Source of the DNA: Paenibacillus xylanilyticus
Lineage (GTDB): Bacteria > Bacillota > Bacilli > Paenibacillales > Paenibacillaceae
DNA length: 64,000 bases
NCBI RefSeq assembly: GCF_009664365.1
Contig: NZ_CP044310.1
Span: 1,933,001-1,997,000, forward strand
Direction of reading: 5' to 3'
Of the stretch, positions 46,507 through 60,532 are shown one piece after another. The notes beneath the pieces were generated by a model. That model made no database searches, was not told where the DNA came from, and was given only the letters and a program-made list of their open reading frames with translations. A program made the position numbers and the translations under genes. Position 1 is the stretch's first letter. Every line of letters begins with the position of its first letter.

Positions 46507-47436
46507 CTATGGAGTTGCTTGATGGTTACTTTCAAGATGGGGAAGGATATCAGACCAGATCAGGTCCAAAATCCCCTGCATGTTCAATTCGTCACTACTA
46601 ACGGCAACTACAGCGTCCAGTTCGGGCAGGACCACGCATAGTTGACCATAAGCGCCATCAGCACGGTATGCATTATGAGAACATAGCCAAAATTGATATC
46701 CGTATCCTTGTCCCCAATCCCCTTCACCCGGCGTTGTTATCTGGCGAGTTGTTGCTTGGTCTATCCATTCCGCAGGAACCAGCTGACTGCCGTTCCAATA
46801 GCCCTTCTGAAGCAAGAACTGTCCGAACCGGCCTAATTCCTCATTTGTAAGCTTTAAGCCCGCACAGCCTAATGTAATGCCCAGTGGAGAGGTTTCCCAT
46901 TCGACGTTATAAATCTCCAGCGGATCAAACAGTCTGGGAATCAGATAATCTTTTACGGTCTGGCCCGAGGCTGCCTGAAACATTGCCGAGATCATAAAAG
47001 TATCGGCACTGCTGTATGTAAATGCCTCGCCAGGGACTCTGTCGATTGGAAGTGACATGTAATATTTAGCCCAATCTTTCTCCGCAAGCGTGGCCCGTTC
47101 CTCCGCCCAGAGCACAGGCACATCATGCCCTGAAGACATCCGCAGCAGATCATACAGTGTGAGATCCGCAGGAGAGAATGCTGTTTGGTCCGGCGCTGGT
47201 GTTGGCCATGTGAAGTATTCTCCCAGTTTGGATTCGAGCGTAAATATGCCTTCTTCGAGTGCCAATCCTACAGCCATGCAGGTAAACGACTTACTGATCG
47301 AATGCTGTAAGCGCCGCTTATCCTCAGTCCGATCCCACATTCCACGTGTTTCTCCATGCTGCAGCACACGAACTGAAAGTACGTTTAATTGCTGAGCCTC
47401 AATATGTTGAACAAAGCGTTGAACAATGCTGGACAT
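46507..47436 (-). CDS. Class C beta-lactamase-like serine hydrolase
   Basis: 309 residues of the beta-lactamase/PBP4* family (esterase EstB-like). The S-x-x-K motif SISKSF (residues ~47-52) and the YSS triad (FTYSSADTF, ~142) are present; a C-terminal HxG-like block is degenerate. No signal peptide, so it acts in the cytoplasm as esterase or amidase, not as a secreted lactamase. AAAGGATG precedes ATG 47436 on the minus strand. It is divergent from the carbohydrate operon and separated from it by 466 bp. Confidence 0.85.
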   Translation of the reverse strand: MSSIVQRFVQHIEAQQLNVLSVRVLQHGETRGMWDRTEDKRRLQHSISKSFTCMAVGLALEEGIFTLESKLGEYFTWPTPAPDQTAFSPADLTLYDLLRMSSGHDVPVLWAEERATLAEKDWAKYYMSLPIDRVPGEAFTYSSADTFMISAMFQAASGQTVKDYLIPRLFDPLEIYNVEWETSPLGITLGCAGLKLTNEELGRFGQFLLQKGYWNGSQLVPAEWIDQATTRQITTPGEGDWGQGYGYQFWLCSHNAYRADGAYGQLCVVLPELDAVVAVSSDELNMQGILDLIWSDILPHLESNHQATP

Positions 47437-47489: not shown

Positions 47490-47554
47490 CGTAATCTGGA
47501 ACCAAAATCAGAAATTATGTTAGTACAATCCGAAGGTGATGTCAATGAAAGATG

Positions 47555-47667: not shown

Positions 47668-47697
47668 TTGACAGGATTTACTCATCGGGATTATGAT
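47668..47697 (+). promoter_or_regulatory. Sigma-A promoter of the carbohydrate operon
   Basis: TTGACA (47668-47673, consensus), 18-nt spacer, TATGAT (47692-47697). The first operator begins 6 nt after the -10. Confidence 0.75.
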
Positions 47698-47703
47698 TTA
47701 TTC

Positions 47704-47727
47704 GAAACGATTCGAAGAAATCGCTTC
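47704..47727 (+). promoter_or_regulatory. Operator copy 1 of the carbohydrate operon
   Basis: GAAACGATT-N6-AATCGCTTC, arms 8/9 complementary. It covers the predicted transcription start. Likely target of the LacI regulator at 58104-59120. Confidence 0.65.
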
Positions 47728-47780
47728 CAAGTAAGAAATGCTGTTTTTAAGTCCATGTGAATCAACGTTAGCTATGTTTT

Positions 47781-47804
47781 GAAACGATTCGAGAAAATCG
47801 TTTC
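47781..47804 (+). promoter_or_regulatory. Operator copy 2 of the carbohydrate operon
   Basis: GAAACGATT-N6-AATCGTTTC, arms perfectly complementary, same spacing as copy 1 and 77 bp from it centre to centre. It lies within the 5' leader. Confidence 0.65.
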
Positions 47805-47902: not shown

Positions 47903-48667
47903 ATGGCACACATCACGATCGAAACCGGATCGCCTACGTTATGCATGAACACAAGCATACACGTAGTGTCCAGTGACTCCGGAGAGACTTCAGGCGGTAC
48001 GCTATATCTGCTGCATGGGGCAGGCGATAATGCGAGTACCTGGCAGCGATTGACTACAATCGAGATGTACGCTGCACAATATGGCTGTACGGTCATTATG
48101 CCAGAAGCGAACCGAAGCTACTACACCGATATGGAGTACGGCCTGAATTACTTCCATTACATTACTCAGGAGCTGCCCGAGTTTTGCAGACGTCAGCTCA
48201 ACCTGAACACGGATCCCCAGAAGACTTACATTGCGGGATTGTCCATGGGAGGATATGGGGCTCTGAAGTGTGCGCTGACTTATCCCGAACGTTATCGCAA
48301 AGTGGTTTCTTTATCCGGAGTAACCGACATTCAGACCAGGCTTCATGATCCCAATATGCCACCAGGTATGATCAAGGAAATGAAAGCGGTTTTTGGAGAA
48401 CGGTTACAGGTAAAGCCCGATCAGGACATTTACGCGCTGTCAGCCAAATTGTTGGAAGAGGGCAGACCTTTGCCGGATGTGCTGAGCTGCTGCGGTGAAA
48501 GTGACCCATTTATCGAAATGAACCGCAGATTCGCCGAGTACATGCAGGGAACTGCCTATCATTTCCGGTACGTTGAATCTCCGGGAGCTCATGAATGGAG
48601 ATTTTGGGAGCAGCACCTGAGAACCATGTTTGATTTTCTGTATAACGACAAGACCAAAGTAGAGTGA
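47903..48667 (+). CDS. Esterase, alpha/beta hydrolase (CE1/EstA-like)
   Basis: 254 residues of the esterase-D/tributyrin-esterase type. Catalytic Ser114 in AGLSMGGYGALK, Asp in CCGESDPFIEMN and His in GAHEWRFWEQH; oxyanion LLHGAGDNASTW. No signal peptide, so intracellular. As first gene of a glucan uptake operon it probably removes acyl groups from imported oligosaccharides; this is inference. AAAGGGG precedes ATG 47903. Its stop overlaps the region of the next gene's RBS. Confidence 0.88.
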   Translation: MAHITIETGSPTLCMNTSIHVVSSDSGETSGGTLYLLHGAGDNASTWQRLTTIEMYAAQYGCTVIMPEANRSYYTDMEYGLNYFHYITQELPEFCRRQLNLNTDPQKTYIAGLSMGGYGALKCALTYPERYRKVVSLSGVTDIQTRLHDPNMPPGMIKEMKAVFGERLQVKPDQDIYALSAKLLEEGRPLPDVLSCCGESDPFIEMNRRFAEYMQGTAYHFRYVESPGAHEWRFWEQHLRTMFDFLYNDKTKVE

Positions 48668-48678
48668 GGAGATGCAAA

Positions 48679-49638
48679 TTGAAACCTGCAGCCGAAGGAC
48701 CTAGCAAAAAGCTGAAGGGAAACCTGAGAGGAAATTCGCTCTGGAGTGAAATCTGGAAGCACAGAATGACGTACACCCTGCTTATCCCGGGGCTTGTCTG
48801 GCTAATCTTATTCGCCTATCTGCCAATGGGCGGCCTGTCACTGGCATTTAAGGATTACAAGGCGAACCTGGGGATCTGGGGAAGTCCTTGGAGCGGATTT
48901 GAGAACTTCAAATACGTGTTCCGGGATCCAACGTTTATTGACGCGGTATGGCGGACATTGTATATCAACATTTTGAAGCTGATTATTCAATTCCCATTCC
49001 CGATTATATTGGCCCTGTTACTGAACGAACTGCGGATGCGTAGAGGGAAAAAGTGGTTCCAAACGATTCTTACGTTCCCTCACTTCCTTTCATGGATTAT
49101 CGTATCCGGGGTTGTCATCAATGTGCTGGCGTATGACGGATTGGTGAATAGCACGCTAGCATTGCTTGGATTGCCAACGATTAACTTCCTGGGTTCCGAA
49201 TCCAACTTTGTACCGATGCTTCTGTTAACAGATATCTGGAAATCAAGCGGATGGAGTGCCATCATCTTCCTCGCTGCGATCTCGGGTATCGATCAGGATC
49301 AATACGAATCCGCACAGATCGATGGAGCTTCACGGTTACAGCAAATGTTCCGCATTACGCTGCCGAACATCCTGCCGACTATCACCGTTATGTTTATCCT
49401 GTCTGTCGGTGGATTGATGTCATCCGGTTTCGATCAGATCTTCAACTTGGCGAATGCCGCAACCAAAAATGTATCGGAAGTACTCGATGTGTATATTTAT
49501 CGGATTACGTTCCAATCATCAACCGACTTCTCGTTCTCGACTGCGGTCAGCTTGTTCCGTTCCCTCGTGAATATGGTCTTGCTGCTCCTTGCTGACAGAT
49601 TTGCGAAGCTGCTTGGCGGAGATGGATTGTTCCGATAA
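48679..49638 (+). CDS. ABC transporter permease, LplB type
   Basis: 319 residues with six membrane helices and the EAA-like cytoplasmic loop YESAQIDGASRLQQMFRITLP. Matches the first permease of CUT1-type oligosaccharide importers of the LplB/YtcP group. TTG 48679 fits AGGAG 48667-48671; the GTG 48664 would precede the RBS. It begins 11 bp after the esterase stop and forms a heterodimer with the next product. Confidence 0.92.
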   Translation: MKPAAEGPSKKLKGNLRGNSLWSEIWKHRMTYTLLIPGLVWLILFAYLPMGGLSLAFKDYKANLGIWGSPWSGFENFKYVFRDPTFIDAVWRTLYINILKLIIQFPFPIILALLLNELRMRRGKKWFQTILTFPHFLSWIIVSGVVINVLAYDGLVNSTLALLGLPTINFLGSESNFVPMLLLTDIWKSSGWSAIIFLAAISGIDQDQYESAQIDGASRLQQMFRITLPNILPTITVMFILSVGGLMSSGFDQIFNLANAATKNVSEVLDVYIYRITFQSSTDFSFSTAVSLFRSLVNMVLLLLADRFAKLLGGDGLFR

Positions 49639-49656
49639 GAAAGGAGGAAAAATGTA

Positions 49657-50562
49657 ATGAGCAAGAAAGCTAACAAAAAATCGAAGATTGGTACAGAACG
49701 AATGACGCTTCTGGATTACGTTATCTTCGCCATCTTACTTGTGCTTGCCCTGATGATTCTGATTCCGTTCTGGAATGTCATCATGATCTCGTTCGCCACT
49801 CAAAAAGAGTATGCGGACAATCCAATGCTAATGTTCCCAAAAGAATTCACCTTTGATTCCTATAAGGCGCTGTTCGCTGACGGAAGCATCCTGACGGGGT
49901 ACAAAAATACATTGATCCTGCTGGTGATTGGCTTGCCTCTCAGTATGTTCCTGACTACGAGCATGGCGTATGGACTAAGTCGCAGCAAATTTCCATTTAA
50001 GAAATTTATCTTTTTCCTAGTGCTGTTCACCATGATCTTCAATGGTGGTATCGTACCACTCTACCTGATCATGAAATCTCTTCATCTGACGGGATCGCTA
50101 TGGTCCGTTATTCTGGCGGGAAGCTTCAGTGCATTTAACATGATCCTGATGATGAACTACTTCTACACACTGCCGGAATCCTTAATGGAGTCAGCTCGAC
50201 TGGATGGTGCAGGGGAGTGGAGAATACTGTTCTCCGTCGTTCTTCCGCTGGCTACACCAATCATTGCTACCATCACGCTGTTCTACGGCGTGGCATATTG
50301 GAACAGCTGGTATGATGCAATGATCTTCCTGCGAAAGGCGGATCAGTTACCACTGCAAAACGTACTGCGGACCATTATCGTCGAATCTCAGACGAATGCT
50401 TCCAACGCATCCAGCGTGGATGCAGCCGGAGCCGCATCCAAATTCTCCACAGGGATGAAGATGGCAGCCGTATTTGTCACAATGGTTCCAATTATGTGCT
50501 TCTTCCCGATGCTGCAAAAGCATTTTGCCAAAGGGGTATTAACAGGGGCTATCAAGACCTGA
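49657..50562 (+). CDS. ABC transporter permease, YtcP type
   Basis: 301 residues with six membrane helices and the EAA loop LMESARLDGAGEWRILFSVVLPLATP. It is the second permease of the importer. AAAGGAGG precedes ATG 49657. No ATPase gene is in the operon; CUT1 importers of this type usually share a MsmX-like ATPase encoded elsewhere. Confidence 0.93.
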   Translation: MSKKANKKSKIGTERMTLLDYVIFAILLVLALMILIPFWNVIMISFATQKEYADNPMLMFPKEFTFDSYKALFADGSILTGYKNTLILLVIGLPLSMFLTTSMAYGLSRSKFPFKKFIFFLVLFTMIFNGGIVPLYLIMKSLHLTGSLWSVILAGSFSAFNMILMMNYFYTLPESLMESARLDGAGEWRILFSVVLPLATPIIATITLFYGVAYWNSWYDAMIFLRKADQLPLQNVLRTIIVESQTNASNASSVDAAGAASKFSTGMKMAAVFVTMVPIMCFFPMLQKHFAKGVLTGAIKT

Positions 50563-50616
50563 TTATACACATAGGATTTTGAGTCAAAAATTCTAACAAA
50601 ACCATGGGGGTAAAAC

Positions 50617-52212
50617 ATGAAAACGAAGAAGAAGCTATCTGTACGATCACTCTTTGCCATCACCCTTAGTGTAGTCATGCTGATGGTGACCGCTTGTTCA
50701 AGCGAAGGTGCTTCGGGAAGTAACGAGAAAGACGAAAACGGAAACTACAAAGATAAGCTGGATATTTCCGTAGCAAGTACGATTCAACTGAAAGATGGCC
50801 AAATGGATAATGAGTTCCACAAATACTGGATGGACAAATTCAATATCTCTTGGGATTACAACTTCGTAGAGTGGGATTCATGGGGCGAGAAGCTTCGTCT
50901 GTGGATCAACTCCGGTGACCTTCCTGACGTAGCCAGCTGGAACTATGTTCACGGCGATGCCATGAACTACATCGACCAAGGTTTGCTCTACAAATTCCCG
51001 GATGACTGGAAAGAGCGCTGGCCTAACGTGGCGGCAGCTTACAAGCTGACTGGCCTTGGAGAGAAGCTGGAAGAATTGAAAGGCGGTACGTACATTCTGC
51101 CTAGACCTGTATATTTTGAAAACAAACCGGCAGATCCGCTGGTGAACCAAATTGGTGTCATTGCACTGCGTAAAGACTGGGCAGAAGCCGTTGGGTTCGA
51201 ATTGAAAGATGCTTATACAACTTCCGAACTGATGGAGTACGCACAACTGGTTAAAGACAAGGATCCAGGTAAAGTTGGAAACAAACTTGTTCCTTTGTCC
51301 TACAACGCTGATGATGCATTGACAAACATCGTTGTTGCCAACAGCGAGCATGCTCGTGTGGAATCTGCTTTCTACAAAGGTGAAGATGGCAAATATCACT
51401 GGGGTCCTGCAGATCCTGAAACGCTTACAGGTTTGAAACTGATGCAAGAAGCTTATCAAAAAGGCCTGCTTAACCCTGAGTTCTATACTTGGAAAAACAG
51501 CGAAGGCAGCGACAATTTCAGAGTTAACGGTGTAGCTGCTGTGACAAGCCTTGGCGGTCTGGCATCTTACAGACAAGATATGGATACTCAAATGAAGAAA
51601 AACCTCGGTGTTGATAGCGATGAGCTGGTTCACACAGCGATCGTTGTAGGCGACGATGGCAAGTATCGTAACCTGGAGCAAGTAAACTACTGGTCCGCGA
51701 CGATCTTCTCCCCGGATATCAGCGATGAGAAATTCGAGCGTATCATGGATCTGATGGACTACTCCATCAGTGAAGAAGGACAACTGCTTCTGAACATGGG
51801 CTTCAAAGACAAAGACTGGAAATATGGCGAGAACAACGAATTGGTAAGCCTGTTGCCTGAAGGTACTACGCTGGAAGATAAATATCCAAGCCGTTTCGAA
51901 GGTTTGTACCTGCTGGGTGACGATTTCAGCATGATTAACCCGGCGATCAAGCAAGAATATCGTGACAGAGCGGTTAAACACTTCCAAGATAAAGCGAAAC
52001 TCGGAACTGAGGGCGGTGCACTCGCTACCTACGATTGGGATGTTCAATTGTATGATTCCAAAGCGAAAAACCAGGCTACATTTGAATACCAAAACGAGTA
52101 TGCCAACCTGATTCTGAAAAGTGGCGATCTGGAAGCCAACTGGAAAGAATGGGTGAACAGCAAAATGTCACTGGTTCAACCAGTTCTGGATGAGCTGAAC
52201 AATCTGAAGTAA
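50617..52212 (+). CDS. Oligosaccharide-binding lipoprotein of an ABC importer
   Basis: 531 residues, long as is usual for the LplA-type binding proteins. Lipobox VTAC with lipidated Cys27; mature protein with extracellular solute-binding fold (FNISWDYNFVEWDSWGEKLRLWINSGDLPDV). Aromatic-rich binding face suggests glucan ligands. Based on the GH3 and GH94 neighbours, beta-1,2-glucan (sophoro-) oligosaccharides are the inferred ligand. It lies 54 bp after the second permease and is followed by a hairpin that may raise its dosage relative to downstream genes. Confidence 0.92.
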   Translation: MKTKKKLSVRSLFAITLSVVMLMVTACSSEGASGSNEKDENGNYKDKLDISVASTIQLKDGQMDNEFHKYWMDKFNISWDYNFVEWDSWGEKLRLWINSGDLPDVASWNYVHGDAMNYIDQGLLYKFPDDWKERWPNVAAAYKLTGLGEKLEELKGGTYILPRPVYFENKPADPLVNQIGVIALRKDWAEAVGFELKDAYTTSELMEYAQLVKDKDPGKVGNKLVPLSYNADDALTNIVVANSEHARVESAFYKGEDGKYHWGPADPETLTGLKLMQEAYQKGLLNPEFYTWKNSEGSDNFRVNGVAAVTSLGGLASYRQDMDTQMKKNLGVDSDELVHTAIVVGDDGKYRNLEQVNYWSATIFSPDISDEKFERIMDLMDYSISEEGQLLLNMGFKDKDWKYGENNELVSLLPEGTTLEDKYPSRFEGLYLLGDDFSMINPAIKQEYRDRAVKHFQDKAKLGTEGGALATYDWDVQLYDSKAKNQATFEYQNEYANLILKSGDLEANWKEWVNSKMSLVQPVLDELNNLK

Positions 52213-52218
52213 CATTCT

Positions 52219-52263
52219 GAACCCGGTGCGCGGTCTCTCCCCGAACGCAGCCGGGTTCTTTAT
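52219..52263 (+). terminator. Intercistronic hairpin, possible weak terminator
   Basis: GAACCCGG pairs with CCGGGTTC (52251-52258), followed by TTTATTTC. It may reduce readthrough into the GH3 gene. Confidence 0.5.
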
Positions 52264-52293
52264 TTCAACAGTATGTAGTGGAGGATAACGGAT

Positions 52294-54459
52294 ATGAATA
52301 ATGAGCAGTTGCTTGACCTGGTCAAACAGATGACGCTGGAGGAGAAAACGGCGCAGCTTCTTCAATTGACCGCCAATTTTTACGAAGGGACAGATGCCCA
52401 AGGCCAGATTACTGGACCGATGGAAGAAATGGGGATCACAGAGCAATCTGTCGTTGCCAGTGGCTCCATCCTGGGCTTGTCAGGCGCACAGGCCATTATT
52501 GATGTACAACAAGCCTATCTGAAAAAAAGCCGTCTCGGTATTCCGCTGTTGTTTATGGCGGATGTCGTGCATGGTTTTAAAACGATTTTCCCGATTCCAC
52601 TGGCGATTGGGTGTTCATGGGATACGGATTTGGCTGAGAAAAGTGCAGAAATTGCTGCACGCGAATCCGCAGTATCCGGTTTGCATGTAACATTTTCCCC
52701 AATGGTGGATCTGGTACGTGACCCACGATGGGGCCGCGTGATGGAAACGACAGGCGAAGATCCGTACCTCAACAGCCTGTTTTCGGCGGCTTTTGTACGT
52801 GGGTATCAGGGCGACAGTTTGAAGGATGATCCAGATCGTCTCGCTGCTTGCGTTAAACACTTTGCAGCATATGGTGCTGCTGAAGGCGGACGTGACTATA
52901 ACACGGTAGATATGTCCGAGCGCAATCTGCGTGAGTATTATTTGCCAGCATACAAAGCAGCCCTGGATGCAGGTGTCGAAATGGTGATGGCTTCGTTCAA
53001 TACAGTCGATGGCATCCCAGCAAGCGGTAATGAAAAGTTGATGCGTGACATTTTACGTGACGAGTGGGGCTTCGATGGTGTATTGATCTCGGATTGGGCT
53101 TCCATCCGCGAGATGATTGCGCATGGTGCAGCTGAAGATGATCGTGAAGCGGCATACCGTGCCATTCGCGCAGGCGTGGATATCGAGATGATGACCCCTT
53201 GTTATGTTAATCATCTGCCTGAGCTGATCCAGAGCGGTGAAGTGGAAGAGAAGCTTATCGATGAAGCTGTACTCCGTATTCTGCAGCTCAAAGAAAAACT
53301 GGGATTGTTCGACAATCCACTCCGTGCCGCTGACCCGGAACGCGAGCGCGAGATTGTATTCTCGAAGGAACATCGTCAGGTATCCTACGAGCTGGCAACC
53401 AAATCGGCTGTTTTGCTGAAAAATGATAACAGTGTACTTCCGCTTCAGCCGGAAGCGAATATCGCATTGATCGGGCCTTTTGCCCAGAGTGAAGACATTC
53501 TCGGCTGGTGGTCTTGTGAAGGCGTGAAGGCGGATGCTGTCAAGCTGGGAACGGCACTGCAGGACCGTCTGCAGCATGGACAGGTTCACATGGCCCAAGG
53601 AAGTGGCGTTCATACGATTACCTCCGAACAAATCGCTGAAGCCATGGAAACGGCGAGCAAAGCAGACCTTATCGTTCTGGCTCTGGGTGAAGATTCTGAA
53701 ATGAGCGGTGAAGGTGGTTCGCGTACCGATATTCGTCTGCCAGCAGCTCAGCTTGAACTCATCAAACAGTTGAAGACGACAGGTAAACCGATAGCTAGCG
53801 TGATTTTTAATGGTCGTCCTTTGGATCTGCACGGTGTGTTTGAAGAATCTGATGCCGTTCTTGAAGCGTGGTTCCCTGGTAGTGAAGGCGGAGCAGCAAT
53901 TGCAGATGTTCTCACAGGCGTAGTGAATCCATCGGCACGTTTGACGATGTCATTCCCGCAGTCCGTCGGTCAGATCCCGGTGTATTATAACCACTTCAAT
54001 ACAGGACGCCCTCTGAACCCGGAGAAAACGGAAGAACGTTATGTTTCCAAGTACATTGATAGCCCGAACGATCCACTGCTTCCATTTGGTTATGGCTTGT
54101 CATATACCACATTCGAATATGGTGATCTGGAAGTGTCCAGCCAGGAGATGACTGCTGATCAACCGATCAGCATCCAGATTCGTGTAACGAATACCGGACA
54201 GCGCGCAGGTGTGGAGACGGTTCAGCTCTATGTGCGTGATGTAACAGGTGAGGTAGTACGTCCAATGCGTGAGCTGAAGGGCTATACGAAACTCGCACTT
54301 GAGCCTGGCGAGAGTGGTACGGCTACATTTACGTTAAATGAGGAACAACTTCGCTATCATCATTCCGATCTGTCTTATCGCAGTGACAAAGGCACATTCC
54401 AGATTTTTGTCGGTCCTAACAGCCGCGATACGCTGGAAAGCACGTTCAAGTTGGTTTAA
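52294..54459 (+). CDS. GH3 beta-glucosidase
   Basis: 721 residues: GH3 barrel (residues ~1-330) with FSPMVDLVRDPRWGR, KHFAAYG and catalytic nucleophile Asp267 (GVLISDWAS); GH3 C-terminal domain with GEDSEMSGEGGSRTDIRLP; fibronectin-III-like domain at ~630-720. No signal peptide: intracellular. GH3 partners of the beta-1,2-oligoglucan phosphorylase in Listeria hydrolyse sophorose, so cleavage of the final beta-1,2-disaccharide is the inferred role. RBS TGGAGG precedes ATG 52294. Confidence 0.93.
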   Translation: MNNEQLLDLVKQMTLEEKTAQLLQLTANFYEGTDAQGQITGPMEEMGITEQSVVASGSILGLSGAQAIIDVQQAYLKKSRLGIPLLFMADVVHGFKTIFPIPLAIGCSWDTDLAEKSAEIAARESAVSGLHVTFSPMVDLVRDPRWGRVMETTGEDPYLNSLFSAAFVRGYQGDSLKDDPDRLAACVKHFAAYGAAEGGRDYNTVDMSERNLREYYLPAYKAALDAGVEMVMASFNTVDGIPASGNEKLMRDILRDEWGFDGVLISDWASIREMIAHGAAEDDREAAYRAIRAGVDIEMMTPCYVNHLPELIQSGEVEEKLIDEAVLRILQLKEKLGLFDNPLRAADPEREREIVFSKEHRQVSYELATKSAVLLKNDNSVLPLQPEANIALIGPFAQSEDILGWWSCEGVKADAVKLGTALQDRLQHGQVHMAQGSGVHTITSEQIAEAMETASKADLIVLALGEDSEMSGEGGSRTDIRLPAAQLELIKQLKTTGKPIASVIFNGRPLDLHGVFEESDAVLEAWFPGSEGGAAIADVLTGVVNPSARLTMSFPQSVGQIPVYYNHFNTGRPLNPEKTEERYVSKYIDSPNDPLLPFGYGLSYTTFEYGDLEVSSQEMTADQPISIQIRVTNTGQRAGVETVQLYVRDVTGEVVRPMRELKGYTKLALEPGESGTATFTLNEEQLRYHHSDLSYRSDKGTFQIFVGPNSRDTLESTFKLV

Positions 54460-54520
54460 TGAATGCGAGTTATGGCAAGTGAGTGATTGGATTTTAGCAT
54501 AAAAATGCAGTGAAGCTGCA

Positions 54521-54558
54521 CTGCCTTCTTCATGCTGCTTGGCAGGGGAAGAAGGCAG
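54521..54558 (+). repeat. Intercistronic hairpin before the GH94 gene
   Basis: CTGCCTTCTTC (54521-54531) pairs perfectly with GAAGAAGGCAG (54548-54558), 4 nt before the RBS AGGAGG. No T-tract. It may stabilise mRNA or affect translation of the GH94 gene. Confidence 0.6.
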
Positions 54559-54569
54559 GATAGGAGGAT

Positions 54570-57500
54570 ATGGATAGATACATGAATACGATGACTAGAT
54601 CGCAAATCAACATTCAAGCTGGCGAGCTGAACTTCACATTCTGGGAGAGCGGTGATCTGTTCCAGGCAGTAAGTGGACAGGCCATGATCAATCAATTAAT
54701 GACAAGCCCGGTAGACGGGTCCATGAATAATCTCTATTTGCGTTTTCATGACGAATCCAGTATTCGTTATGTCCCAATGCTCGGCATCCATTCCGAGAGC
54801 CAGGTTCATCACGACGGAGACCGACTGGTGTGGGCAGGAAATGCAGAAGGTGTGACTTATCAGGTTGTTTTTGCACCGTCAGCTCGGGGAGTCTGGTTCT
54901 GGGATGTAACGGTTAACGGCCACGGGGAAAAAGTGGATGTCATCTACGGCCAAGACATTGGCATAGCTGACCCCGGAGCGGTACGAAGCAATGAAGCCTA
55001 TCTTTCGCAATATATCGATCATGCCGTATTTGAGGATGACAAATGGGGGTATGTCGTAGCATCCAGGCAAAATCAACCGCAGGGCGGGGTATTTCCTTAT
55101 GTGCAGCAGGGATCTCTAACTCGTGCTACGGGGTATTCAACCGATGGATTCCAATTCTTTGGCTTAAGCTACAAGGAAACGAATATTCCGGAAAGCCTGC
55201 TTAAACCCTCGCTCGCAAATGAAGTATATCAATATGAATTTGCATATACAGCCCTTCAGTCAGAAACTGTGGTTTTGAATGGCGAAGCCCGCTTTGTATT
55301 CTATGGCCTGTTCCAGGCGAATCATGCGGCAGCCATTAAGGAACTGGAGTATAAGGATGTTGTGGAGCAAGCCTGGAACGAATATGAAGCGAAAAGTACA
55401 GGGAACGGAGCTGCTGAAGCTAGCTCTGCCAACGCTTTGCCTAAAGTTTCCTTGAACCCGACTCTGGGTGAGCCGCTTCGTACTTTGGCTATGTCTGATG
55501 ACGAAGTGAATGCCCTTTTCCCGGCTTCAACCAGACAACAGGAAGAACGTGCCAATGGCGAACTGTTGGCATTTTTCACAGACACTTATGAGCATATCGT
55601 CCTCAAGGAAAAGGAAATGCGCGTGGAGCGTCCGCATGGTCATATTTTGATGAGCGGAAACAATGTGAAACTGGGCGAGAATGTAATTACGACGACTTCC
55701 TACATGTACGGTATTTTTAACTCACACATCGTTGTGGGCAATACGAACTTTAACAAAATGATGAGCAATGCCCGCAGTGCGCTGAATATCGCGAAATCCT
55801 CCGGTCAGCGGATCTACGTAGAGATGGACGGAATCTTCCATCTGCTCACCATGCCGTCTCTCTTCGAGATGGGCTTCAACTATGTGCGCTGGTATTACAA
55901 AACGGATCAGGACACGCTGATTGTCACGAACTATACAACACTGGATACTCCTGAAATACGTTTGCATGTGAAATCGGAAAAAGGAATCGCTTATCGCTAC
56001 CTGATCACCAATCAGATCACCATGAATGTGAATGAGTATGAATTGCCTGCCCGTGTCACCGAACAGAACGGTGAACTTCGCATTAAGGCGAATACGGACA
56101 GCCTCAGCGCCAAGGAATACCCGAATCTGGAATATCGCATGTCTGTGAGCGGAGCGGGAGTCAAAGTTGGCGATGAGACCCGACTGGCGAGTGGTGTGAA
56201 TTCGGGTGACGGATCCATTTTCACCTTGCAGCTGGGGAGTACGGCTGAATGGACAATGACCATTCAAGGCCTGCTTGAAGGAGAGAGTGTGGTGTTGTCT
56301 ACACGCAGCTTCGAGGAGGAAGTCGATGCTTATCGTGCCTTTTATGCGAAAGTCATGAATGGGTTCCATCTGTCGCGTCCTGGGAAGCCGAATGCAGAAG
56401 AGCTGTTCAAGGTCAATGCGCTTGCATGGTGGTATACCCATAATATGCTGGTCCATTACTCCGTTCCGCACGGTTTGGAGCAATATGGCGGCGCAGCTTG
56501 GGGTACACGGGATGTATGTCAGGGGCCGGTCGAATACTTTATGGCTACGCAAAAATATGAACAGGTCCGCGATATTTTGAAAATGGTGTATTCGCACCAG
56601 TATGAGGATGACGGCAACTGGCCGCAATGGTTCATGTTTGACCGTTACTTCAAAATTCAGCAGGAAGAGAGCCATGGGGATATCATTGTATGGCCGCTTA
56701 AAGTACTGAGTGACTACCTGATTGCAACCAAGGATTACTCCATTCTGGATGAAGAGGTTCCTTACACCGTTAAACATGGTTTCCATTTTAGTGAAGAGAA
56801 AGCATCGGTGCTGGAACATGCGCAGAAAGAGCTCGAATATATCCGCAGCCACTTCCTGCACGATACATTCCTTTCCTCGTATGGTGATGGAGACTGGGAT
56901 GATACACTTCAACCCGCGAATGCCCAACTGAAACAGTATATGGTCAGCAGCTGGACCGTTGCCCTTACGTATCAAACACTGAGCCAGCTATCCAGAGCAC
57001 TTGTGCCTGTGAAGCCGGAACTAGCGGCAGAATTAAGCAGCATGGCTGCAGGGGTGAAAAAGGACTTCAACAAATATATGCTGGATACCGACGTTATTCC
57101 TGGTTTCGTATATATGGAAGATCCAGAGCAAGCCAAGCGGATGCTGCATCCGGATGACAGCGAGACTGGCATTCAGTACCGTCTGCTGCCGATGACACGC
57201 AGCATGATTGCGGAGCTTCTGGAGCCAGAACAAGCAGCGTCTCACTATCGTTTGATTAAGGAAAAATTGTTCTGCCCGGACGGCGTGCGGCTTATGAACC
57301 GCCCAGCCCAATACGATGGAGGGGTAAGCACTCATTTCAAACGTGCTGAACAGGCGTCCAACTTCGGTCGTGAAGTTGGTCTGCAATATGTGCATGCACA
57401 TATTCGCTACATTGAAGCCATGGCGAAACTTGGTAATCCCGAGGAAGTATGGAACGGCCTTGGCATCATCAATCCTGTGGGTATTCAGCAAGTCGTGCCT

Positions 57501-57953
57501 AATGCGGATCTCCGCCAGAGCAATGCTTACTTCAGCAGTTCTGATGGTAAATTTAACAACCGCTACGATGCGCAGGAGCAGTTCGATAAGCTTCGCACAG
57601 GTGAGGTTCAGGTAAAAGGCGGCTGGAGAATCTATTCCAGCGGACCAGGGATTTACATGAACCAACTGATCTCGAACGCACTGGGCATTCGTCAAGAGGA
57701 AGAGGATCTCGTCATTGATCCCATCCTTCCGGCAAGTCTGGACGGCCTGCACTTTGATTTCCAATATAACGGAAAGAATGTGACCTTTGTCTATCATCTT
57801 GGTGGAGAAACGGTACAACGTGTGCTGCTGAACGGCAAGGAACTGGAGACGACGAGACTGCAGCAGCCTTATCGTCAGGGGGGACTGCGTATTTCGCGTA
57901 CAACCCTTGAGCAAGGTCTGGCCGAAGGTAACGTGATCGAGATTTACAGCTAA
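54570..57953 (+). CDS. GH94 phosphorylase, 1,2-beta-oligoglucan phosphorylase-like
   Basis: 1,127 residues. The C-terminal part is a GH94 (alpha/alpha)6 catalytic domain: GTRDVCQGP, DGNWPQWFMFDRYFK, and GDGDWDD (773-778), whose last Asp778 aligns with the general acid of GH94. The extra ~500 N-terminal residues (beta-rich) match the length of the 1,2-beta-oligoglucan phosphorylases; cellobiose-type enzymes are ~800. It would release glucose-1-phosphate. No signal peptide. Start uncertain: AGGAGG (54562-54567) is only 2 nt from ATG 54570 and 14 nt from ATG 54582. Confidence 0.88.
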   Translation: MDRYMNTMTRSQINIQAGELNFTFWESGDLFQAVSGQAMINQLMTSPVDGSMNNLYLRFHDESSIRYVPMLGIHSESQVHHDGDRLVWAGNAEGVTYQVVFAPSARGVWFWDVTVNGHGEKVDVIYGQDIGIADPGAVRSNEAYLSQYIDHAVFEDDKWGYVVASRQNQPQGGVFPYVQQGSLTRATGYSTDGFQFFGLSYKETNIPESLLKPSLANEVYQYEFAYTALQSETVVLNGEARFVFYGLFQANHAAAIKELEYKDVVEQAWNEYEAKSTGNGAAEASSANALPKVSLNPTLGEPLRTLAMSDDEVNALFPASTRQQEERANGELLAFFTDTYEHIVLKEKEMRVERPHGHILMSGNNVKLGENVITTTSYMYGIFNSHIVVGNTNFNKMMSNARSALNIAKSSGQRIYVEMDGIFHLLTMPSLFEMGFNYVRWYYKTDQDTLIVTNYTTLDTPEIRLHVKSEKGIAYRYLITNQITMNVNEYELPARVTEQNGELRIKANTDSLSAKEYPNLEYRMSVSGAGVKVGDETRLASGVNSGDGSIFTLQLGSTAEWTMTIQGLLEGESVVLSTRSFEEEVDAYRAFYAKVMNGFHLSRPGKPNAEELFKVNALAWWYTHNMLVHYSVPHGLEQYGGAAWGTRDVCQGPVEYFMATQKYEQVRDILKMVYSHQYEDDGNWPQWFMFDRYFKIQQEESHGDIIVWPLKVLSDYLIATKDYSILDEEVPYTVKHGFHFSEEKASVLEHAQKELEYIRSHFLHDTFLSSYGDGDWDDTLQPANAQLKQYMVSSWTVALTYQTLSQLSRALVPVKPELAAELSSMAAGVKKDFNKYMLDTDVIPGFVYMEDPEQAKRMLHPDDSETGIQYRLLPMTRSMIAELLEPEQAASHYRLIKEKLFCPDGVRLMNRPAQYDGGVSTHFKRAEQASNFGREVGLQYVHAHIRYIEAMAKLGNPEEVWNGLGIINPVGIQQVVPNADLRQSNAYFSSSDGKFNNRYDAQEQFDKLRTGEVQVKGGWRIYSSGPGIYMNQLISNALGIRQEEEDLVIDPILPASLDGLHFDFQYNGKNVTFVYHLGGETVQRVLLNGKELETTRLQQPYRQGGLRISRTTLEQGLAEGNVIEIYS

Positions 57954-58052
57954 AAATGGTAGAAGAACACTGGGGTAACAGGGATCGAAAGATGATTCTG
58001 TAACCGGAGTGTATCAGATAAGGGTTAGTCCGTTTACCAACTATTCAAGAAG

Positions 58053-58079
58053 TCAGGTCCTCCAGCCCGGAGGGCCTGA
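58053..58079 (+). repeat. Intercistronic hairpin before the LacI gene
   Basis: TCAGGTCCTCC pairs with GGAGGGCCTGA (one G-T wobble), loop AGCCC. No T-tract. It precedes the regulator gene by 24 nt. Confidence 0.55.
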
Positions 58080-58103
58080 TGAAATAACAGGGGAGCGAAG
58101 ATT

Positions 58104-59120
58104 GTGGTCAGTATCAAGGATATCGCCAAAAAGGCGGGGGTTTCAATCTCCACCGTGTCTTATGCGCTGAATGGCAGCAATAAAGTGACAGATGAGACCA
58201 GCTCCAAAATTTTGGCCATTGCCAAAGAGCTGAACTATGTTCCGAACGCTGCCGCTCGTACGTTGAAGAAAAGGGAGTCCAAAATTCTTGGTGTATTTCT
58301 GACAGACTTTAGCGGAGATGTATACGGGGATTTGCTTAGTGGAATGAAGACAGTTTGCAACGCTCAGGGCTATGACTTGATTGTCTGCAGTGGCAAACAG
58401 TCCCACCGGATGCTTCCGGAGCGAATGATTGATGGGGCGGTTATACTCGATCATACGTTTGCCAGCGAGGAGCTGCTGCAATATGCCGATCGGGGACATA
58501 AAATTGTCGTTCTGGACCGAGAGCTTCATCATCCGAATATCAATCAGGTACTGCTGGATAACAAGGCAGGAGCTACACTGGCGATGGAACATCTGATCGA
58601 GCAGGGACATACGAAGATATATGTCGTAACTGGTCCGGAGGGTTCATTTGACTCGGCACAACGGATGAAAGCGGTAAGACAAGTAACCGAGCGGGAAGCA
58701 AATGTGGAATGGATCGAGATTGTAGGAGACTTTGAGAAAAGTGGCGGAGAGCAGGCCGCTGAGTTAATTATTCAAGAGTATACGAGACCGGCTGCGGTAT
58801 TCTGTCTCAATGACGAGATGGCTATTGGTCTGTGTAATCGCTTGGCCGAAAGTGAGCTGCAGATTGGCCGGGATATTGATGTCATCGGTTTTGACAACAT
58901 TGAACTGAGCAAATATGTTCAACCAAGGCTGGTCACCATTGACTATTCCAAAAGGAAATGGGGTTCCCTTGCAGCGGAGCAGTTAATCAAAATTATTGCC
59001 GGAGAACCGGTGGATCATGAACGAATCTACGTTACATTGGTGGAGGGTGGTTCAGTTTGCAGACAGGTTCCAGAAGATATCCCATTGCCTATTCGCCATG
59101 AACGGGTGGTTAGCTCTTGA
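58104..59120 (+). CDS. LacI-family transcriptional regulator
   Basis: 338 residues: N-terminal LacI HTH (VSIKDIAKKAGVSISTVSYALN) with hinge (AARTLKKRESKILGVFLTDF), then a periplasmic-binding-like ligand domain. GTG 58104 follows GGGGAGCG. It is the last gene of the glucan operon and the obvious candidate to bind the two GAAACGATT-N6-AATCG(C/T)TTC operators, with an oligosaccharide or glucose-1-phosphate inducer. Confidence 0.93.
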   Translation: MVSIKDIAKKAGVSISTVSYALNGSNKVTDETSSKILAIAKELNYVPNAAARTLKKRESKILGVFLTDFSGDVYGDLLSGMKTVCNAQGYDLIVCSGKQSHRMLPERMIDGAVILDHTFASEELLQYADRGHKIVVLDRELHHPNINQVLLDNKAGATLAMEHLIEQGHTKIYVVTGPEGSFDSAQRMKAVRQVTEREANVEWIEIVGDFEKSGGEQAAELIIQEYTRPAAVFCLNDEMAIGLCNRLAESELQIGRDIDVIGFDNIELSKYVQPRLVTIDYSKRKWGSLAAEQLIKIIAGEPVDHERIYVTLVEGGSVCRQVPEDIPLPIRHERVVSS

Positions 59121-59467: not shown

Positions 59468-60532
59468 TCATTTGTAAAATAAAAAGTGAGTAGGTACAGG
59501 TCTGAGATTGCCGTCTGATGGATTGTTCACAACCCGATTGTTCAGGATTAGCGAGGAGGAGCCGCCGCCATCCAGATTGTAGGCATCCACTACGCCAAGT
59601 TTGTATAGACGACCCTGAAGCTCTTCTAGAGTCGCACCAGAGCTTCCGCTTTCGTTATATCCATCCACGACGATAATAAGCAGCTGATCATCCTTGTAAT
59701 TGCCAATTACGGTACGTGGAGCCCTCTTGGGCGAAACCTTCCACTTAGCAGGAATGGCTGTTTTCTTGCCATTCTGAAGCAGGACAGGTACAAAAGTTGC
59801 ACCGAACTGTGGTTTGAGGCGGTCCAGGGAGTTTTTATCAAAAAATTTGCCGCCTACCAGTTTGCCCGTATCGTTAAGTCCTACAAAAAACAGATCCTTG
59901 AAACTGGCTTGGAAGCCGTTCACATATTTACCGTCCATGACCGTTGTGCTGAGCGGGTATCGTTTGCCACCGCTATCCGCGAATCCGCCTGCATTAATTC
60001 CGGCGATTGCGCCATTTCGCTTAACGGCCTGCATGGTTGTCTCGGCCTTTCCAGGTTCACTGCTCATGGCCATTTTCATGGCCGTAGGGTTCTTCAGTTT
60101 AACTTTCATTGCGTAACCCTTATATGTGCCAGGGTTCACTCGATAGAGTTCAATTGTAAGCCGGTCACTGTTAACCCGTTCAATGGGAACGCCGAGCTTG
60201 GACGAAATACGCTGGTTGTATATCGTTTCCGGACGTGCGGCTTGTGCCGACGCCGATTGAACAATGGTAGACATCGTACTGGTCGTACGATTATACAGCT
60301 CTGTCGTTCTTTTAATAGAAGAAGAAGTTTGAACGGCAGCTTCCTTGGCCCCAGCAAGCTCCTGGCGTATAGCCTGGGTCTGGGGAGTAATCGTTTCCTC
60401 TGACAGTCCGGAATGAATCAAATCCCCGGGTTCAAGCGGGGGGCGAAACAGCAGCAAACAGATGATCAATCCAATAAAAGGAGCAAGTGCAAGCATAAAA
60501 AAACGATTAACCTGTTTTACGGGTGTAATCAT
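59468..60532 (-). CDS. Membrane-anchored phosphodiester glycosidase (NAGPA) protein
   Basis: 354 residues. N-terminal signal anchor (residues ~11-29, FFMLALAPFIGLIICLLLF), a helical linker (~45-95) and a NAGPA domain (GAIAGINAGGFADSGG, DGYNESGSSGATLEELQ, hallmark YNLDGGGSSSL). Paralogue of the protein at 11692-12798 but anchored rather than cleaved. Overlaps the following coiled-coil gene by 4 bp on the minus strand, suggesting that both work together at the membrane. The substrate, perhaps a wall or exopolymer phosphodiester sugar, is not known. Confidence 0.85.
   Translation of the reverse strand: MITPVKQVNRFFMLALAPFIGLIICLLLFRPPLEPGDLIHSGLSEETITPQTQAIRQELAGAKEAAVQTSSSIKRTTELYNRTTSTMSTIVQSASAQAARPETIYNQRISSKLGVPIERVNSDRLTIELYRVNPGTYKGYAMKVKLKNPTAMKMAMSSEPGKAETTMQAVKRNGAIAGINAGGFADSGGKRYPLSTTVMDGKYVNGFQASFKDLFFVGLNDTGKLVGGKFFDKNSLDRLKPQFGATFVPVLLQNGKKTAIPAKWKVSPKRAPRTVIGNYKDDQLLIIVVDGYNESGSSGATLEELQGRLYKLGVVDAYNLDGGGSSSLILNNRVVNNPSDGNLRPVPTHFLFYK

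What the first reader, a model, noticed from the sequence alone, without database searches (positions are those of the whole stretch)
47903..59120. Putative beta-1,2-oligoglucan utilisation operon with a 1,127-residue GH94 phosphorylase
An ABC importer without ATPase, a GH3 beta-glucosidase, a GH94 enzyme of oligoglucan-phosphorylase length and a LacI gene occur in one operon. The GH94 has ~500 extra N-terminal residues and keeps GDWDD. Established knowledge: in Listeria innocua a GH94 1,2-beta-oligoglucan phosphorylase, a GH3 glucosidase active on sophorose and a binding protein for sophoro-oligosaccharides form one system. Inference: this operon imports and phosphorolyses beta-1,2-glucan fragments, for example from rhizobial cyclic glucans.
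Basis: partly seen in the sequence, partly recalled or inferred. Interest (0 to 1): 0.7.

Follow-up and report, generated by a model that had tools for sequence, protein, structure and literature searches.

The report
Beta-1,2-glucan operon with two esterases
A Paenibacillus-like genome carries a gene set of the kind known from Listeria for eating beta-1,2-linked glucose chains, here with two extra esterase-type genes and a shared DNA switch sequence, so it would likely strip acyl groups off such chains before breaking them down, a step that my literature searches did not turn up.

Summary
In detail: 47903-59120 encodes esterase, two permeases, binding protein, GH3, a 1,127-aa GH94 and LacI. 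[quoted passage not shown] the GH3 is closest to Lin1840. The binding protein is not a Lin1841 relative, and nothing points to cyclic glucans. Three things were missed. (1) The first gene is a cytosolic PF00756 esterase; such esterases lie beside SOGP, co-oriented, in 51 of 108 distinct SOGP loci, in two separate clades. The window's clade occurs in 47 of 245 family genomes, all 47 with SOGP. (2) A beta-lactamase-family serine hydrolase (46507-47436, minus) is divergently placed next to it in 47 of 47. (3) An operator, TCGAAACGWTTCGA, lies between them; 95 of 108 SOGP loci have it with at most one mismatch (189 sites, 1.4 expected), and it links the operon to a second SOGP locus of this genome. 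In 17 of the 47 genomes the operon lacks SOGP but keeps an operator, with SOGP elsewhere. Best model: import, deacylation, phosphorolysis, glucosidase. Deacylation and the acyl group (succinyl or acetyl) are inferred.

The parts
46507..47436 (-). beta-lactamase-family serine hydrolase (PF00144), divergent partner of the operon; likely esterase or acyl transferase, no signal peptide seen by reading
   Evidence: only NCBIfam hit at 0.001: NF045925 3-succinylated cholic acid synthase, 196 bits, cut-off 800; relatives in 57 of 151 loci scanned, near-identical loci included; S46, K49, Y141, S142, S143 in 57 of 57 rows; 47 of 47 clade-I esterase genomes
47517..47545 (-). predicted promoter of the divergent gene (TTGACA-17-TAACAT)
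   Evidence: 2 promoter-like sites found against 1.6 expected, so weak alone
47668..47697 (+). predicted operon promoter (TTGACA-18-TATGAT), four bases before operator 1
   Evidence: weak alone
47702..47715 (.). operator 1, TCGAAACGATTCGA, predicted LacI-family site over the likely start of transcription
47779..47792 (.). operator 2, TTGAAACGATTCGA (one mismatch)
47903..48667 (+). cytosolic alpha/beta-hydrolase esterase (PF00756), clade I; triad S114-D201-H230
48664..49638 (+). ABC sugar permease
49657..50562 (+). ABC sugar permease
50617..52212 (+). solute-binding lipoprotein of the large AlgQ/FusA-like kind, not Lin1841-like
   Evidence: contrast
52294..54459 (+). GH3 beta-glucosidase, closest solved relative Lin1840
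54570..57953 (+). [quoted passage not shown]
58104..59120 (+). LacI-family regulator, predicted to bind the operators

Best explanation
By sequence this is a Listeria-type SOGP gene set for beta-1,2-gluco-oligosaccharides, joined to two serine-hydrolase genes that likely remove acyl esters from the imported sugar before phosphorolysis. Proposed order: a binding lipoprotein and two permeases, with an ATPase encoded elsewhere, would bring linear and probably acyl-decorated beta-1,2-gluco-oligosaccharides into the cell. The PF00756 esterase and the divergent beta-lactamase-family hydrolase would take off acyl groups (succinyl or acetyl, both reported on natural beta-1,2-glucans) that would otherwise block the phosphorylase subsites. 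SOGP would then phosphorolyse chains of three or more units to glucose 1-phosphate, stopping at sophorose, which the GH3 would split to glucose. A LacI-family repressor would hold the unit and a second SOGP locus shut through the operator TCGAAACGWTTCGA. Shown here: gene content, family membership, residue conservation, gene linkage, operator distribution. Inferred: transport substrate, deacylation, repression.
For: SOGP: four domains, 1,021 bits to LpSOGP over residues 13-1122, 16 of 16 LpSOGP ligand residues in the window protein, each conserved in at least 107 of 108 SOGPs (residues from PMC5309861, passages). GH3: Lin1840 best at 768 bits, D270/E473/R572 equivalents kept (PMC4757417, passages). 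Esterase link: co-oriented in 51 of 108 distinct SOGP loci and in many gene orders; with added homologues, clades I and II are separated by other rows. Clade I: 47 of 245 family genomes, all 47 among the 145 with SOGP (chance 4.9e-13 without regard to kinship); 30 in one operon with SOGP, 17 apart; all 17 apart are the same operon lacking SOGP, with an operator upstream. Beta-lactamase-family partner divergent at 330-1,556 bases in 47 of 47. Operator: 189 sites with at most one mismatch in 95 of 108 SOGP loci against 1.4 expected; own genome 7 places, 5 at the two SOGP loci. In clades I and II Arg146 is in 60 of 60 and Tyr73 in 59 of 60 esterases (10 of the 60 from operons lacking SOGP); in 11 unlinked paralogues 0 of 11 have Arg146 and 11 of 11 have Phe73. 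Natural beta-1,2-glucans bear succinyl and, in some species, acetyl groups (PMC11842490, passages).
Against: No substrate was tested. 57 of 108 SOGP loci show no such esterase, so deacylation is not always needed (stretches are limited to about 8-23 kb, so some may be missed). One weak esterase-like hit on the opposite strand in L067 was dropped by my 100-bit limit. L068, a SOGP-linked esterase outside both clades, has Ile at position 146. Saccharibacillus operons (such as L104, L117) lack both hydrolases; L126, L134, L135, L235 and L237 have the beta-lactamase-family gene without the esterase, and L236 only a short esterase piece. Three genomes without a SOGP match still carry the beta-lactamase-family gene (G465, G496, G501), in other surroundings without operator. 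The nearest solved esterases (FphF, EstA, 4rgy) belong to no beta-1,2-glucan system that I know of (recalled). Tyr73 with Arg146 also occurs in 5 of 25 further homologues, one of them in clade I, four of unknown context. 13 of 108 SOGP loci lack the operator, and exact sites occur in 3 of 19 genomes without SOGP_N. The genomes are related, so counts are not independent.
Confidence: 0.6

Rival explanations
1. A plain Listeria-type beta-1,2-gluco-oligosaccharide operon; the two hydrolases are neighbours with an unrelated or general ester-cleaving role.
For: 57 of 108 SOGP loci do without the esterase; the nearest solved esterases are of general EstA/FphF type; SOGP and GH3 alone would suffice for undecorated chains.
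Against: 47 of 47 clade-I genomes have SOGP and the divergent partner; separate second recruitment in clade II; the operators lie in the shared upstream region.
Confidence: 0.25
2. The substrate is an acylated sophoroside from plants, yeasts or other microbes (flavonoid sophorosides, sophorolipids), not a glucan.
For: Such compounds carry acyl esters and a beta-1,2-linked glucose pair (recalled); Lin1840, the closest solved GH3, prefers sophorose (PMC4757417, abstract passage).
Against: SOGP needs three or more glucose units (PMC5309861 abstract, PMC4757417 passage), and all 16 ligand residues are kept; sophorosides have two.
Confidence: 0.1
3. The GH94 acts on another beta-glucan (cellodextrin, laminari-oligosaccharide, chitobiose) and only looks like SOGP.
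For: None found; GH94 as a family holds such activities.
Against: SOGP domains; of four solved-structure hits LpSOGP has 1,021 bits and the next 29; 16 of 16 ligand residues.
Confidence: 0.04

Closest known systems
Listeria innocua lin1838-lin1843 beta-1,2-glucan cluster (Lin1839 SOGP, Lin1840 GH3, Lin1841 binding protein)
   Same: LacI, SOGP, GH3 and three transporter genes in the same order by locus number (PMC3960220, one passage); GH3 closest to Lin1840
   Different: Binding protein of another kind; extra PF00756 esterase and divergent PF00144 hydrolase, neither named in the one passage on the cluster that I read; strands in Listeria were not checked
Lachnoclostridium phytofermentans SOGP, PDB 5h3z
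   Same: Full-length similarity, all 16 ligand residues
   Different: Gene surroundings not compared
FphF (6vh9), EstA (2uz0, 4rot) and 4rgy esterases
   Same: Fold (TM 0.80-0.90 on the query); catalytic triad assigned from conservation
   Different: About 29-37% identity in the structural alignments; not known to belong to a beta-1,2-glucan operon (recalled)
BAS-suc, 3-succinylated cholic acid synthase (beta-lactamase family; PMC11749272, passages)
   Same: Only NCBIfam model hit by the divergent gene at 0.001, E 8.9e-58
   Different: 196 bits against a cut-off of 800, so not that enzyme; a lead for succinyl chemistry only

Membership tests
[quoted passage not shown]
   all four above cut-off
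SOGP (GH94 1,2-beta-oligoglucan phosphorylase) | LpSOGP ligand residues N138, Y141, Q621, G623, A626, R630, D631, W758, D760, R907, R916, E917, Y922, H924, Y1004, S1005 | tested here: met
   16 of 16 (list from PMC5309861, passages; chain numbers read as paper number plus one)
SOGP (GH94 1,2-beta-oligoglucan phosphorylase) | Phosphorolysis of chains of three or more units, not sophorose | not testable with these tools
   needs an assay
Listeria-type beta-1,2-glucan cluster | GH3 of the Lin1840 kind with D270, E473, R572 | tested here: met
   residues from PMC4757417, passages
Listeria-type beta-1,2-glucan cluster | Binding protein homologous to Lin1841 | tested here: not met
   no match by sequence at E up to 1; binding proteins of two other SOGP clusters match at 380 and 522 bits
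Listeria-type beta-1,2-glucan cluster | SOGP, GH3, ABC permeases and LacI together | tested here: met
FphF/EstA-type esterase (PF00756) | Fold and Ser-Asp-His triad | tested here: met
   (TM 0.90 to 6vh9); S114, D201, H230 in the conserved positions
FphF/EstA-type esterase (PF00756) | Ester cleavage and acyl preference | not testable with these tools
   needs an assay
BAS-suc equivalog NF045925 | Score above the curated cut-off of 800 | tested here: not met
   196 bits
Class C beta-lactamase-family serine hydrolase (PF00144) | SxxK and YxS motifs | tested here: met
   S46, K49, Y141, S143 in 57 of 57 rows; motif names recalled

The most novel reading that the evidence does not exclude
Paenibacilli run a two-esterase de-succinylating pathway for decorated beta-1,2-glucans of other bacteria: an alpha/beta-hydrolase and a beta-lactamase-fold deacylase unmask imported oligosaccharides for SOGP, under a class-wide operator TCGAAACGWTTCGA. 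It would be the first known enzyme set that removes acyl decorations from beta-1,2-glucans, and the decoration would then act as a shield against ordinary SOGP users.
Probability: 0.35. Interest if true: 0.72.

Novelty: new variant of a known kind. Interest (0 to 1): 0.52.

Why it matters
Natural beta-1,2-glucans are often acylated (PMC11842490, passages), while the phosphorylase and glucosidase work that I looked at used plain oligosaccharides. A dedicated deacylation step, if real, would explain how soil bacteria eat the natural, decorated forms, give enzymes to edit these glucans, and suggest what the decoration protects against. The operator gives a ready-made search string for further members of the regulon.

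Tried and rejected
An importer of the Listeria kind was rejected for the binding protein; its model is only moderate (pLDDT 75.6) and its nearest folds include both acidic-sugar (AlgQ, chondroitin) and neutral-sugar (FusA, NgtS) binders, so it says nothing firm about charge.

A single origin of the SOGP-linked esterases was considered: the first tree had no outgroup and could not decide; with 25 more homologues clades I and II stay apart. The surroundings of those 25 were not looked at, and some of the forks between are weak.

GH144 by its Pfam domain PF10091: none in the own genome. GH162 and GH192-194 were not searched. SOGP_N was found in 7 of 398 genomes drawn across the phylum, all 7 of the window's own class, so spread beyond Bacilli could not be studied. 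The exact operator also lies in 3 of 19 genomes without SOGP_N; in G053 the exact site lies inside a GH35 gene on another contig than SOGP. Two own-genome sites lie inside coding regions.

Rows dropped: 122 SOGP loci were cut to 108 by near identity of SOGP; of 374 related loci the tool kept 80; esterase hits under 100 bits were left out (one of 36.8 bits; L067); L068 was kept out of clades I and II. Of the 42 SOGP places, one is the window, 40 were fetched and the own second copy.
Full report
What is there. The seven genes of the finding are present and co-oriented at 47903-59120. Pfam identifies an Esterase-family alpha/beta hydrolase, two ABC permeases, a GH3, a protein with SOGP_N, SOGP_2nd, GH94 and SOGP_4th domains, and LacI; the binding protein hits no Pfam family at 0.001. 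It has a lipoprotein-like start (LMVTAC; sequence reading).

The phosphorylase. The best solved relative is LpSOGP, 1,021 bits over residues 13-1122; the next of four hits has 29 bits. The residues that PMC5309861 (outline and passages seen) lists for glucose 1-phosphate, phosphate and sophorose binding are all kept in the window protein, 16 of 16, and each in at least 107 of 108 SOGPs aligned here. The third GH94 match of the genome, a 794-aa protein with the ordinary GH94 domains, is clearly different.

The glucosidase. The GH3 has Lin1840 as best solved relative at 768 bits and keeps the equivalents of D270, E473 and R572 (residues from PMC4757417, passages). R572 is shared with other members of that clade (same source), so it is consistent, not specific.

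The importer is not Listeria's. The binding protein of the window does not match Lin1841 at E up to 1. Those of two other SOGP clusters, L137 and L036, match Lin1841 at 380 and 522 bits. The window type is a large binding protein near AlgQ, chondroitin and FusA binders (model pLDDT 75.6).

A second SOGP locus. The genome holds a second SOGP (69% identical) at C1:5972643-5975963. Next to it lie another PF00756 esterase (37% to the first) and another LacI (41%). This led to a survey.

Survey of SOGP loci. PF21958 was found in 35 of 299 genomes of the class, 42 places. With 80 named loci (the best 80 of 374) this gave 122 SOGP loci, the window among them, and 108 after removing near-identical SOGPs. 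A PF00756 esterase of at least 100 bits lies within 12 kb in 51 of 108, on the SOGP strand in all 51, in gene orders such as E-P-P-Y-3-S-L (window type), L-E-S, P-P-L-E-3-S, P-P-E-3-S, L-E-3-S and P-P-3-S-L-E (E esterase, P permease, Y window-type binding protein, 3 GH3, S SOGP, L LacI). A weaker hit in L067, on the opposite strand, was dropped by that limit.

Two esterase clades. SOGP-linked esterases fall into clade I (the window's) and clade II (that of the second locus), plus one long-branched row, L068. With 25 further homologues, the fork that holds clade I with three others is supported 100/99, other sequences stand between the clades, and clade II is nearest to unlinked paralogues (99/86); some forks between are weak. 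This speaks for two recruitments. Ser114, Asp201 and His230 are conserved. In the 60 rows of clades I and II (46 and 14; 10 of the 46 from operons lacking SOGP) Arg146 is present in 60 and Tyr73 in 59; of 11 unlinked paralogues none has Arg146 and all have Phe73. L068 has Tyr73 but Ile146. 5 of 25 other homologues, one of them in clade I, have both. An arginine is what a carboxylate-bearing acyl group such as succinyl would need, but I could not place it in the pocket.

Co-distribution. In 245 genomes of the family, clade I esterase (E up to 1e-70) occurs in 47 and SOGP (E up to 1e-100) in 145; all 47 have SOGP (same draw and handles; hypergeometric 4.9e-13, which ignores kinship). In 30 the esterase is within 12 kb of SOGP on the same strand; in 17 it is not. 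I fetched all 17: each is the same operon, esterase-permease-permease-binding protein-GH3-LacI, without SOGP, while SOGP sits elsewhere in the genome. So SOGP can be supplied in trans and the esterase stays with the operon.

The divergent hydrolase. A beta-lactamase-family gene, 46507-47436 on the minus strand, faces the operon across 466 bases. Its relatives were found in 57 of 151 loci scanned, near-identical loci included, and in 47 of 47 clade-I genomes, divergent, 330-1,556 bases away. SxxK and YSS are invariant in 57 of 57 rows. It occurs in 53 of 245 genomes (E up to 1e-90); 50 have a SOGP match, 3 do not, and in those 3 it lies in other surroundings without operator. Its only NCBIfam hit is the bile acid succinylating enzyme BAS-suc, far below the cut-off (PMC11749272, passages). 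That is a lead only. I make no claim about antibiotics.

The operator. The intergenic region holds TCGAAACGATTCGA at 47702 and TTGAAACGATTCGA at 47779. A promoter-like TTGACA-18-TATGAT ends four bases before the first (two promoter-like sites found against 1.6 expected). In this genome TCGAAACGWTTCGA with up to one mismatch occurs at 7 places: two here, three at the second SOGP locus, and two inside coding regions. Across the 108 SOGP loci there are 189 sites with up to one mismatch in 95 loci against 1.4 expected from a first-order model. All 17 SOGP-less operons carry at least one. Exact sites occur in 25 of 35 genomes with SOGP_N and 3 of 19 without; the one in G053 lies inside a GH35 gene. 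Among the 13 SOGP loci without a site, five have a clade II esterase and no LacI found upstream of SOGP (L040, L136, L138, L139, L141).

Mechanism. Established knowledge and the cited papers give: SOGP needs three or more units and leaves sophorose; Lin1840 prefers sophorose. Natural beta-1,2-glucans carry succinyl, and in some species acetyl, groups (PMC11842490, passages). From linkage, two recruitments, a divergent second hydrolase and operators in the shared region I infer that imported oligosaccharides are acylated and are deacylated in the cytosol before phosphorolysis. The esterase has no signal peptide by sequence reading.

Print. I searched for esterase + SOGP, 2-glucan + LacI + phosphorylase + esterase, sophorose + LacI + operator, Paenibacillus + 2-glucan + sophoro, 2-glucan + succinyl + esterase + phosphorylase and oligoglucan phosphorylase + LacI. 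No title or abstract start in these listings describes esterases in SOGP clusters or this operator. Of the papers listed I saw passages of PMC12102758 (esterase once, as a CAZy class), PMC3960220 and PMC4757417; the others, PMC6987092 and PMC5827456 among them, I did not open. The library holds open-licence papers only.

Limits. Related genomes are not independent. No activity was tested. The core reading, an SOGP operon, I hold at about 0.9; the added deacylation step at about 0.55; succinyl as the group at about 0.35.

Noticed in passing
L206:10011-10024 (genome C1:229010-229023): An exact TCGAAACGTTTCGA lies inside a domain-permuted GH3 gene (L206:9215-11998); a further exact site in a similar sequence is present in each of the 14 other same-genus genomes examined. 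It sits in a 25-base invariant run (next longest 9), and 5 of 5 third codon positions in it are invariant against 23% over the 15-row alignment. It may be an intragenic operator and a third regulon member.
   Followed up: partly
L222:9001 (G046) and L223:9001 (G260): Two genomes without SOGP carry the exact operator just before a LacI gene; in L222 the operon goes on with two binding proteins, permeases and an ordinary 827-aa GH94. L223 was not annotated further.
   Followed up: partly
L040, L136, L138, L139, L141: SOGP clusters with a clade II esterase but no operator; upstream, on the opposite strand, lie three genes of 436-461, 536-591 and 589-617 aa that I did not annotate, perhaps another regulatory or binding system.
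   Followed up: no
window 59468-60532 (-): A phosphodiester glycosidase (NAGPA, PF09992) follows the operon; relatives lie in 31 of 151 loci scanned. It seems a syntenic neighbour, not part of the unit.
   Followed up: no
L236:3169-3654: In G418 the esterase is only a short open piece (180 bits) in an otherwise complete operon with divergent hydrolase and operator.
   Followed up: no
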